NCBI GenBank assembly: GCA_009760855.2 | Contig: WPIO01000084.1 | Span: 372,501-436,500 of the forward strand | Source: Cristatella mucedo | Taxonomy: Eukaryota; Bryozoa; Phylactolaemata; Cristatellidae | Length of the DNA stretch: 64,000 nucleotides | Reading direction: 5' to 3' | Shown here: positions 45,954 to 63,374 of the stretch, piece by piece | Position numbering within the stretch: the first letter of the stretch is position 1 | Layout: each line of letters opens with the position of its first letter | Notes under the pieces: generated by a model | The model's database searches: none | What the model was told of the DNA's origin: nothing | Seen by the model: only the letters and a program-made list of their open reading frames with translations | Position numbers and translations under genes: made by a program

Positions 45954-46611
45954 TATACATACGTAGAAGTAAGTGTGGGTATATATGCATATATGATTTT
46001 CTCGTTCAATGTTAAAAGCTTAAAGGCAGTCAGCTGTATATTTGAACTCGAGTTCTCAACGAGAATACATTTCATGGCGGGCGTAATTCATCAAGGGTAA
46101 GAGGCCTAATAAATCTAAACACTATAAAGTTTCAAAGTTAAAAAAGCACTGCACGAACACGCCATGTTTTAGTCATTTATCAGCTAGCACAGTTTTGTTG
46201 GATGACCATGTCGTGTTAAAGAAAGATTCGCTTCCATGAAGTTTGAGTCCAAGAAGTGCCCCTCACTGTTTATTTAGTAGCTGAATAGTTTTGGATTACA
46301 CGATATTACTAAGGTAATATGGTTGTAATACATGACTGATTGCTATAATAGTAGGCTACTCTCAGGCTAACAACTCGAGCAGAACACCTTTAAACGCTCG
46401 AAGTGGCAATATGTCTTTACCAATCATTGCACAAACTCTGTTTAAGCACAACATAAAATGACTACAGCTGCAATTACTATATAATAATTTGATTTATCGT
46501 TCACTGTTAATAATTTCAACGATAATAGAGTAAAGGAATTAATCATACAATGTGGGATGTAAGTTTGATTTTCGATAAAGAACTACATTAGTGGATTAAC
46601 CAGGCTCGTTA

Positions 46612-46680
46612 GAATTGTGGTAGACGAGTCTAAACGGCTGTCACCACCCCAAACAGTTCTTAAGCATATAATAAGCATAG
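46612..46680 (-). mobile_element. SINE-A fragment shared by duplication copies
   Basis: GAGTCTAAACGGCTGTCACC matches the SINE-A body. The same fragment lies at the homologous site near 56095-56170, so it predates the duplication. Confidence 0.6.
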
Positions 46681-47784
46681 CTAAAATTATTTTTTATGCA
46701 GCATAACGAATAGATGACGTCCTCTTCTGGTCATTCTTTGTTCGTGCTGGCTATCAAACTCAAGCTCTGGAAAGCTCAATAACGCATTTCTCACGTATTG
46801 CTACTTACAAGAGATGTTGCACTGAATAAGCTTGTCCTGTCAGTCTTAGTCGGCCTTTCTAGGCGCTATTCTGATTATAGCCATATGCGACAATTTGGGA
46901 GCGATCCAGTAAATAGTATGACGGAGGTTCTTGTGTATACATTTCTTGACGCACAATTCTGACTTCCAATTTTGAAAGCTAACTTTTTGCATTGTATCAC
47001 ATAAGCTAACCCCAAAATACCTTGAGCGTAGAATCGGGCCTATTCTATGAGGTTTCCTAAATTTAAGATGCTGAACACATACCGATTTATTTATAGTCTT
47101 CGCAAACACGATGCAACAGTTCTATTATTAAGCCAATGCTGCTGATCATGAATCAGGGCTGTTCTTGTATTGACTAGTGCAACAGATGATAGTAACTGGA
47201 CTGACGTGAATGGGTTCAACTATCCTAGTTATAGCCAAAATTTGTCGCATCTTGTATGACGTTTTTTGTTTAATATGTCTAGAGGCTCTTTAAATCGAGC
47301 CAATGCCTATGTGTATTCAAGAAATGCGTTTCCTTAAAATGTTTCCCCTTTTTCTGTTATTGAGAAACTTCAAGAATTTCAAAAAATAAATTCATGCTCA
47401 GACAATTGTATTTACATGCAGTTTACGAAACTTTAAAGCATTGCATCTAATGCTTTCTTTAGAGCACAGCTACCTACGTTTTGAGGCATTAGCCATTACT
47501 AAGAGATTCATTGATACAAGTATCGATGTAAAGATTTCAGTTACAAATAAACGTTGTTTCATACTAATTTACCACAGGGATGAAATTTAAATGATTATCA
47601 TGTGAAGCGAGTGATTAATCCTCCGCTATTAGTACAGTAAAAGCCTACAATGTTCCTCCAATTCTATCTAAATAAAGCTTTAGAATAAAACAACATTTTT
47701 ATCCTTAAATATGAATAGTTACGCATTTAAAGCTATTTTCATCCTTAAAATTGCATTTTAATGAGGTCATTTATAATATTTTAG

Positions 47785-47937
47785 TGCTTTATTGTGACAA
47801 TGATGGCAACCCAATATCCAGGCGCCATTCTTAATGATAGCAGGAAATTGAATGACTTCCGGCATGCCGGTGGTATTGGAAATTCGTTCGTCGAACCCAG
47901 TCAACCTAAATGAAAGTCAAAAGAAAATTATTAAATT
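47785..47937 (+). pseudogene. Paralogous MS4A-like first coding exon, broken (copy 1)
   Basis: This exon aligns along its whole length with 57447-57598 and keeps the TATAATATTTTAG acceptor, the double ATG (47800) and the GTGAGT donor at 47938. It starts MMATQYPGAI, but one extra base after the tenth codon shifts the frame. In the restored register a TGA also replaces the codon that is CCA (Pro) in the other copy. Both the frameshift and the stop are visible directly. The downstream duplicated intron ends near 51.26 kb and no second exon is seen before the next copy begins, so this gene copy appears truncated as well as broken. Confidence 0.75.
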
Positions 47938-48249
47938 GTGAGTTATTTTAGGCGGCACCTCGACATATTTTCATGGAAATAATATGCAAGTACAGGTATG
48001 AAATACCAAGGAAGTGACGGAAAATAATTTCTGAGACATTACTTTGCTACATAGTTAAAAATGAATTGAATATAACACATGCTTACATTTTTCTCTGGCC
48101 GATGCGCATATAATATTTATTAATGCATAAACCTTCAGCTGTATAGGTAATCTAAATCTACTTATTAGGTACTTCACCGAGGGTGAGAAGGAGAACGCTT
48201 TTCAGCTGATAAGAAGCGCAAATCACGCCCAGTAGCAGTATTAATAAGC

Positions 48250-60876: not shown

Positions 60877-61353
60877 GAATGTAATGTATCTCCGTCAGTA
60901 ACTCCACAAAGTCATAAAGACCTTGTGGGTGTTATGCAGGAGAGTTTTGTATAGCGCACTCACAGCCTAAGCGGCTTTCGGTACGCATTCGGTAGCCAAC
61001 AGACTTCGTCTCACGCAACAAAGAGAAAGTGGGAAGCATAGCAGAGTCAGGAGAGCAGTTGTGGTAGTGAGTAGCATAGAAGTAGCAGTTCAGGACCGCT
61101 GAAAAAGATGTGCCATAGTCGGCAGTTGGAGAGTAGTCATGGTTGCGTAAGAATTTTGGAAGCGAGTTCCACAGTCTAGGACCTGCAGTGCTAAAGCTTC
61201 TGCCGCCAACTGTGTTTAAGCGGAGGAATGGGACAGCTAATTTATTGTCCACACAGGACCTGAGGGTGCGAACAGGCTTAAACGGATGCAGCAGTTCAGC
61301 TAGGTACGAAGGAGCAAAGCCGTGGCGGGCCTTGTGGGTCAGGGTAAGAACTT
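60877..61353 (-). mobile_element. LINE-B insertion specific to duplication copy 2
   Basis: The complement of AATGTATCTCCGTCAGTAAC starts the element. The minus frame has ELLHPFKPVRTLRSCVDNKL, GPRLWNSLPKFLRN and SVGYRMRTESRLGCEC. Copies 0 and 1 lack it. It is one of the least decayed LINE-B ends. Confidence 0.92.
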
Positions 61354-62794
61354 TTGTGTGGCCAATCTGAGCCGTGAGATTATCAGCATGCATGCCAAAA
61401 TCCTGCCAAAAAGAAAAGTAGGCGTACGAAGGGGATTGTTGAGTTCTTTATGGCCAGCTCGCCCTGGTTACAGCTTCCTCAAAAAACGTTCAGATATTTT
61501 TCTCTTCTTCGAATCGGTCAGTGGCATTATCAATGTGGCGATGGTGATCTCACGCCTAAAGACGAATTGCCCAGTCAGCACAAATGTATAGTCGGGACAA
61601 AAGCAAGAAGCGGCTGGCCTAAATAGGCCGTGGCCCTAAAGTGGGAGAATGCACTGATAGGCCCAGTGGTAATCGCTTTGGCCTCTGCCATATCGCTTAA
61701 TACACATTCTAGAATAAATTGAGCACGTTGAAGAGAGCTGTAGCACGATTGAGCAGAAAATCAAGGTGACATGCTTGAATAGAATACATAACTTTGTCGA
61801 CACTATTTTGCATTTTAAATCAAATGGAGGACTTTATATTGATTATATGCTCGAGCTATCGAAAGGCAAGCAAAAGAGGATCAGAATGTCTTCAATGCCT
61901 TTCAAATGACCGATCTCACCGTGCAATCGCCGACAGAGATGTGAAAGGCTAGCTACAGTGATCTGTTGATAAAGTTGCAAGATCTCTTTCACTGTGCATG
62001 AGAGGGAGGCTGTTTACATGACCTCAACAACGTAGGTGTCCCGGTCGGTCTCGTCATCATCAGCACGCAAATAGTAATTTAAAAGCTATTTTGCGAGGAA
62101 TTGGACAACATACGATAACGTCAGAGTAGTATTGTAGGTATGACAAACTACCAATGGAGTTGCTTCGCATGTTTGCTTGAATCCCCCGTCAGCAACAGCT
62201 CTTGGCATTCAAAGTCTGTAGTTTGGAATAGCTTGACACCAAAGTAAGTAAGATAGACCTTTCAAATGTTTAACCCATTCTCTTCCGACCGCATGTGCAC
62301 ACATTTTTTTAAATTGATATACATTTGGAACAAAGGAGCTAAGGGTAGCTTCCTGATCTTCCAATCACACTGGAAATAATTCTGGTCGAGCCGAGGCCAG
62401 CTATTACTCATCTTACTTTGTCATGAGACATATTCTGACATTATCAGCATTAACAACTAAGGCCGAACAAGCGTTTGGTATATTGAAACTTATTAAAACG
62501 TCTTTCTTATGATTATGGGCGTGGGAAACCTCAATAATAGCGGCATTCTCTTTTTAATTTTGCGAGTAAATGGCTTCGATAATCATCAATGATGAGATCC
62601 GCCACAGGTTTCACGTCGAAGAAAGCGCAGGCGAGTTCCAGTGCATTTATCATTGTCGGTAGAGCTAACCCTAGAATGAAAATCCTGGCAAAGATAATGA
62701 TTGTAGTTTTCACTCAAATCAATGAAACTTTTGTAATTAACCCATTGCCTAATTTGATGAGCCTAATAGATGTTTCCTTTGCAAGTCTCTTTAT

Positions 62795-63165
62795 AATAAT
62801 AATAATGATAATGATAATAATGCACTTGATTAAGCGCCCTCAGAGAACTCAATCACTTTCTAGGCGCTTTACATTTGCTGCAATGGGAAATGCAATTAAA
62901 TGGTGATTAACATCATGCTTGATAAACAAACAACATGAATAACATGGTTAGTGGCAGCATGCACAGTGTCAGCACGCATAAGCACATGAAGGACAAATCA
63001 CAGGGACCCACTAATGCTGTCCTAAATATGGTGTGTTTTTTAAGTTCTTTTTAAATGTGGTCAAGTCAGGAGATGTTCTGAGGCAAGTCGGGAGGGAGTT
63101 CCAGGCTTTGGGAGCATAAGAACTAAATGCACAGTCTTCAAAGGATTTGAAACTTATACGAGGTA
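62795..63165 (-). mobile_element. LINE-A insertion near the end of duplication copy 2
   Basis: (AAT)n at 62796-62823, TGCACTTGATTAAGCGCCCT, a 3' UTR with a small deletion, and the C-terminal segment. Copy 0 is continuous here (about 2260-2350). Confidence 0.88.
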
Positions 63166-63374
63166 TTGGTCCTTGCAATCAATTTGCTGTTGAACATGGG
63201 CACCCCTTCTCTGAAGAATTCCCTATCATTATCTCCTGTTCAGATCACATTTAACCGAATGTGCAGTCTCTTTAAAATACCTTAATTACTATCTATTGCC
63301 AAATCAAGCTAAACGGAGGTCTAGCAGCGAATACAGTCTCCTAATCGAAGAGACTCTGATCCACTCAAAACAAT

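What the first reader, a model, noticed from the sequence alone, without database searches (positions are those of the whole stretch)
46060..63345. Tandem array of MS4A-like gene units with duplicated first exons
A unit containing an upstream region, a first coding exon and several kb of intron 1 occurs three times in direct orientation (1-2450, 46060-51260, 54980-63345). The exons at 47785 and 57447 end in phase 2, matching the exon at 8429, which needs such a partner. Together this predicts a gene cluster whose members extend past both window edges.
Basis: partly seen in the sequence, partly recalled or inferred. Interest (0 to 1): 0.82.

Follow-up and report, generated by a model that had tools for sequence, protein, structure and literature searches.

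The report
Tandem CD20-like gene cluster with relic
A row of duplicated genes for four-pass membrane proteins resembling CD20, in which the middle of the three copies seen here is a dead leftover: ordinary gene-family growth and decay, cleanly preserved.

Summary
The window lies in a 1.8-Mb contig of a 572-Mb genome. The missing first exon lies 1.6-1.7 kb upstream of base 1, and the missing transmembrane exons lie past base 64000. Gene A has 6 coding exons (window -1737 to 39098, 267 aa), gene C also 6 (57462 to 78609, 262 aa). The proteins are 72% identical, the genes colinear, dN/dS 0.47. All 5 family members that I modelled match Pfam CD20, some only weakly; PDB hits are CD20 alone but not significant. 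One correction: the middle unit (45973-53403) is not a gene. Its homology stops about 0.5 kb short of exon 2, its first exon has a frameshift and a stop, and it changes at the rate of its flanks. The upstream/exon-1 unit was found at three places in the genome, all here. Copies differ by about a quarter or more, so they are not false duplications of the assembly. Best reading: old whole-gene tandem duplication, with a truncated relic between two live copies. The host was not identified.

The parts
1..2475 (+). Part of intron 1 of gene A (its exon 1 lies outside the window at -1737 to -1601)
   Evidence: Colinear with C 59425-63356 in several pieces; exon 1 found in flanking DNA
8429..8546 (+). 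Gene A exon 2 (TM1, start of TM2 region)
   Evidence: Splice signals, frame, counterpart in C at 67229-67346
16630..16686 (+). Gene A exon 3 (TM2), phase 0/0
   Evidence: counterpart 71621-71677 past the window
32379..32498 (+). Gene A exon 4 (TM3)
   Evidence: counterpart 72998-73123 past the window
38197..38334 (+). Gene A exon 5 (TM4 and Cys-rich stretch)
   Evidence: counterpart 78106-78243 past the window
38865..39098 (+). Gene A exon 6 (C-terminal tail, stop)
   Evidence: Spliced frame of 804 nt open to the stop; counterpart 78397-78609
39099..45539 (+). 3' flank of gene A, weakly similar to the 3' flank of gene C
   Evidence: Three long blocks at 61-63% under loose scoring plus shorter ones
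45973..53403 (+). Unit B: relic of upstream region, exon 1 and most of intron 1; no exons 2-6 found
   Evidence: Colinear with A -3551 to about 6894 and with C up to 66721, which is 508 bases before C's exon 2
47800..47937 (+). Relic of exon 1 in unit B, with a 1-base insertion and a TGA
   Evidence: rate test
53443..54727 (+). Left flank of unit C, similar to two stretches left of gene A
   Evidence: Matches -12206 to -11550 and -6852 to -5813 at 72%; 3 places found genome-wide with 53443-54560
57462..57598 (+). Gene C exon 1 (coding part, phase 2); a conserved TTTTAG at its front suggests that the exon starts at 57447 after a 5' non-coding exon
   Evidence: the 5' non-coding exon is inferred, not found
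57599..64000 (+). Intron 1 of gene C, running past the window edge to exon 2 at 67229

Best explanation
This is part of a direct tandem row of CD20-like (MS4A-type) genes that grew by whole-gene duplication. Genes A and C are two intact paralogs. Each encodes a protein with a short N-terminal part, four membrane helices and a C-terminal tail (that both ends lie in the cytoplasm is inferred from the family). Unit B between them is the 5' remnant of a further copy (upstream region, exon 1, most of intron 1) that lacks exons 2-6 and decays without constraint. Shown by computation: exons, frames, colinearity, constraint on A and C, lesions and unconstrained change in B. Inferred: unequal crossing-over as the duplicating event, deletion as the cause of B's truncation, and a role of the proteins as membrane organisers or partners of receptors, as recalled for other CD20-like proteins.
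For: The spliced frames of A (804 nt) and C are open from ATG to stop. A-C DNA is colinear through the gene at 65-76%; nine blocks, almost all non-coding, have 250 indels in 14036 columns, whereas 260 aligned codons have one internal indel of 6 bases, where about 14 would be expected (Poisson chance of 1 or fewer 1.4e-5). dN/dS (NG86) is 0.18/0.39 over the protein and 0.12/0.43 over the TM part. Pfam CD20 matches 5 of 5 members, best E 7.5e-8, and 0 of the 6 block-shuffled controls that I submitted of 8 made. In exon 1, B-specific change is 19 of 137 sites against 159 of 1188 in the flanks (p 0.89); A and C pooled are 14 of 274 against 235 of 2376 (p 0.008). B is the most diverged copy: pooled JC distances AB 0.391, BC 0.395, AC 0.286. 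Three more genes of the family lie on the same contig and strand, at about 287-302, 334-348 and 670-677 kb; the first two resemble each other colinearly too.
Against: Gene A scores 25.8 bits against Pfam CD20, under the curated cut-off of 27.9; the VIT1 profile also touches 2 of 5 members (best E 0.0097). Exons 2-6 of gene A find no CD20 in the PDB (12 chance-level hits), and the five-member profile finds 4 CD20 chains only at E 0.41-1.7. No relative in the protein database at E <= 0.01. Constraint is weak in exon 1 (dN/dS 0.15/0.19) and in the tail (0.34/0.43) of A and C; taken singly, neither A (p 0.08) nor C (p 0.06) differs from its flanks in exon 1, and their few changes there do not favour third positions (A 2/4/3, C 3/2/0). 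No transcript evidence. B could have been a partial copy from the start.
Confidence: 0.87

Rival explanations
1. B is an alternative promoter and first exon of gene C: it is spliced over gene C's own exon 1 to the exon at 67229, starting at the later ATG (47852) in the restored register.
For: Donor sequence and, from 47852 on, an open phase-2 register are kept.
Against: A 1-base insertion and a TGA upstream; B-specific change in the exon equals its flanks (19 of 137 against 159 of 1188, p 0.89), codon positions 7/4/7; no window of 131 in the upstream/exon block stands out as constrained in B (lowest p 0.02).
Confidence: 0.07
2. B was born as a partial duplication of 5' DNA only, and never held exons 2-6.
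For: B's homology runs without exon remnants from A -3551 to about 6894 and ends right beside C's left flank at 53443.
Against: None decisive. B is about as far from A as from C, so it is not a recent copy of either; its truncation may equally be a later deletion.
Confidence: 0.35
3. The repeats are an assembly artefact (unmerged haplotypes).
For: None found.
Against: Divergence of about 24-30% in well-aligned blocks and more elsewhere, with different transposon insertions in each copy; haplotypes are far more alike as a rule (recalled).
Confidence: 0.01
4. A, C and the others are four-helix membrane proteins of another family that resemble CD20 by convergence.
For: Weak scores; Zuccolo et al. 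(PMC2826416, passages seen) argue convergence for invertebrate look-alikes.
Against: 5 of 5 members match the CD20 profile and shuffles with the same hydrophobic layout do not; the profile's only PDB hits are CD20.
Confidence: 0.12

Closest known systems
MS4A family (CD20, FcepsilonRI beta, HTm4; Pfam PF04103 CD20-like)
   Same: Four hydrophobic helices; tandem genes in one direction on one contig; Pfam CD20 match in 5 of 5 members modelled. Clustered MS4A genes in vertebrates: PMC2826416, passages seen.
   Different: Weak similarity (gene A under the curated cut-off); a Cys-rich CCKG stretch after TM4; a shorter loop between TM3 and TM4 than in CD20.
TMEM176 family
   Same: Named together with MS4A in PMC2826416 (passages).
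   Different: No TMEM176 sequence was compared; closeness not measured.

Membership tests
CD20-like family (Pfam PF04103) | Match to the family profile | tested here: met
   5 of 5 members match at E <= 0.1, best 7.5e-8; gene A 1.2e-5 at 25.8 bits, under the 27.9 cut-off. Rows for three members lack exon 1, two of them also the last exon. 0 of 6 shuffles match.
CD20-like family (Pfam PF04103) | Four membrane-spanning helices | tested here: met
   Hydropathy peaks fall into four regions in A and in C; topology of the ends not tested.
CD20-like family (Pfam PF04103) | CD20 fold | tested here: inconclusive
   Sequence profile against the PDB finds 4 CD20 chains at E 0.41-1.7 and nothing else up to E 10; gene A alone finds none; no structure was predicted.
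MS4A family proper | Shared ancestry with vertebrate MS4A genes shown by a tree or synteny | not tested
   No vertebrate gene set at hand.
MS4A family proper | Genes clustered on one chromosome | tested here: met
   11 of 11 matches (20 candidates scored) lie on contig C670, + strand; they belong to A (4), C (4) and one each to three further genes.
Decayed gene copy (unit B) | Disabling lesions, missing exons, loss of constraint | tested here: met
   Insertion, TGA, no exon 2-6 match in B's span, exon rate equal to flanks.

The most novel reading that the evidence does not exclude
The relic B keeps a working promoter and first exon that feeds gene C, giving it a second, shortened N-terminal part: a decayed copy turned into an alternative start of its neighbour. 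And if the host is an invertebrate (not tested), the row would be a CD20-like cluster outside jawed vertebrates, where a 2010 survey found no clear MS4A genes (PMC2826416, passages seen).
Probability: 0.07. Interest if true: 0.5.

Novelty: new member of a known kind. Interest (0 to 1): 0.28.

Why it matters
It adds a small cluster of CD20-like genes with complete models and shows, side by side, the outcomes of tandem duplication: two copies kept under selection and one truncated and decaying. A blind reading of raw sequence placed an exon outside the window to within about a hundred bases, which is a useful check on the method. If the host proves to be an invertebrate, the cluster would bear on when MS4A genes arose.

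Tried and rejected
Rejected: a nested minus-strand gene at 1567-2073 (169-codon open frame): its counterparts in B and C are 38-53% alike in protein, one with 5 stops and one with 1. Rejected: 53443-54727 as a transposon: 3 places found genome-wide, all here; its end 54573-54717 does overlap a short dispersed repeat. Uninformative: bacterial promoter scan; Pfam CD20 against the own genome, 0 matches, but the control rang in 0 of 14 genomes; gene A exons 2-6 against the PDB and the protein database; paralog alignment against the protein database, 7998 candidates, none at E <= 0.01. First splice scans were too strict. Exon 1 alone matches no Pfam family. Paper searches gave listings; passages were seen of PMC2826416 and PMC7776563 (nothing on amphioxus MS4A genes in the three places shown). 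None of the five searches was exhaustive for invertebrate MS4A reports.

Full report
What was claimed.

The repeats are real. BLASTN within the window gives long direct matches at 71-77%. The window is G000:C670:372501-436500 in a genome of 572,011,866 bases in 688 contigs; window coordinate = contig coordinate minus 372500. I fetched the flanks and searched 285001-486500 and 655001-695000 of the contig with the exon peptides. The predicted upstream first exon is at window -1737 to -1601 (76% identical to that of copy C, E 3e-19). The predicted downstream exons are at 67229-67346 (TM1), 71621-71677 (TM2), 72998-73123 (TM3), 78106-78243 (TM4) and 78397-78609 (tail).

Gene models. Gene A: -1737..-1601, 8429-8546, 16630-16686, 32379-32498, 38197-38334, 38865-39098, 804 nt, open from ATG to stop, 267 aa. 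Gene C: 262 aa over the matching six exons. Junction phases are 2, 0, 0, 0, 0 in both. The proteins are 72% identical. A-C dN/dS by NG86: whole 0.18/0.39, exon 1 0.15/0.19, TM part 0.12/0.43, tail 0.34/0.43; constraint is thus clear in the TM part and weak at the ends. In nine blocks, almost all non-coding, 250 indels fall in 14036 columns; the 260 aligned codons hold one internal indel of 6 bases, against about 14 expected.

What was duplicated. A and C are colinear over the genes, intron blocks included, at 65-76%, over the 3' flank to 45539/89133 at 61-68% under loose scoring, and on the left: 53443-54727 matches -12206 to -11550 and -6852 to -5813, and with 53443-54560 as query only these places were found in the genome (3 of 3 candidates). 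The two partly overlapping matches left of A mean that this flank was rearranged or repeated there; I did not resolve it. The unit is thus the whole gene with flanks, not just its first exon and intron. Younger transposon copies (for example 92% between 21647-22120 and 60882-61354) are inserted differently in the copies.

Unit B is a relic. It runs from 45973 (A -3551) to 53403 (C 66721), 508 bases before C's exon 2, and borders C's left flank at 53443. In the scanned stretch no TM exon lies between it and gene C's exon 1. Its exon has a 1-base insertion and, in the following register, a TGA. Copy-specific changes in the exon: B 19 of 137 sites against 159 of 1188 in the flanks (p 0.89); A 9 of 137 against 137 (p 0.08); C 5 of 137 against 98 (p 0.06); A and C pooled p 0.008. 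B's changes spread over codon positions 7/4/7; those of A (2/4/3) and C (3/2/0) are few and do not show third-position excess. JC distances: block 1 AB 0.361, AC 0.275, BC 0.311; block 2 AB 0.332, AC 0.273, BC 0.350; block 3 AB 0.546, AC 0.324, BC 0.639, where the alignment is less sure; pooled AB 0.391, AC 0.286, BC 0.395, A-C closest in 1000 of 1000 site bootstraps. B is therefore old, and not a recent copy of A or C. It either split off first or changes faster because nothing holds it; these data do not separate the two.

Which family. Pfam CD20 matches 5 of 5 members (best E 7.5e-8); gene A itself scores 25.8 bits under a cut-off of 27.9, and VIT1 touches 2 of 5 (best E 0.0097). Of six block-shuffled controls (of eight made) none matches CD20, and one matches DUF441 at E 0.024. 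The five-member profile's only PDB hits up to E 10 are 4 CD20 sequences at E 0.41-1.7; gene A's exons 2-6 alone gave 12 chance-level hits and no CD20. No relatives at E <= 0.01 in the protein database (779 candidates; 7998 scored). I therefore call the genes CD20-like with good confidence and MS4A proper only as the likeliest relation. Zuccolo et al. 2010 (PMC2826416, passages seen) found MS4A genes in jawed vertebrates and none that was clear in invertebrates; whether this bears on the present case depends on the host, which I could not identify.

The wider row. Eleven matches to gene A's exons 2-6 in the genome (20 candidates scored) all lie on this contig and strand: four in A, four in C, one each in three further genes. 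Their exons were found at about 287-302 kb, 334-348 kb and 670-677 kb of the contig; the first two genes resemble each other colinearly. Their first exons were not found.

How it works, in my view. Unequal crossing-over (inferred) multiplied a gene whose product is a four-helix membrane protein; copies A and C stayed under selection while B lost its body and decays. The function of the products (membrane organiser or receptor partner) is inferred from the family alone.

Verdict. Observation confirmed, interpretation right in its main prediction and wrong about the middle unit. A new member of a known kind; modest interest.

Noticed in passing
22813-23550 and 23762-24418, minus strand (intron 3 of gene A): Open pieces of a LINE-type retrotransposon: reverse transcriptase (RVT_1, E 6.7e-14) and, under the curated cut-offs, an endonuclease domain.
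   Followed up: partly
36804-37797, plus strand: A second LINE-like piece (RVT_1 E 1.3e-6, 28.7 bits, just under the cut-off of 29.6), with relatives in many places of the region.
   Followed up: partly
C670:287-302 kb and 334-348 kb (loci L009-L015): Two further CD20-like genes upstream on the same strand that form a duplicate pair of their own; their first exons were not located.
   Followed up: partly
C670:670183-677044 (loci L024, L025): A more distant CD20-like gene (35% identical to gene A) downstream on the same contig and strand.
   Followed up: partly
window -12206 to -5813 (C670:360294-366687, loci L016, L017): Two partly overlapping matches to C's left flank lie left of gene A, which points to a local rearrangement or repeat there.
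   Followed up: partly
about 25260-25590 and 45885-45955: Long simple repeats (GA)n/(CT)n and (AC)n, the second directly left of unit B's start.
   Followed up: no
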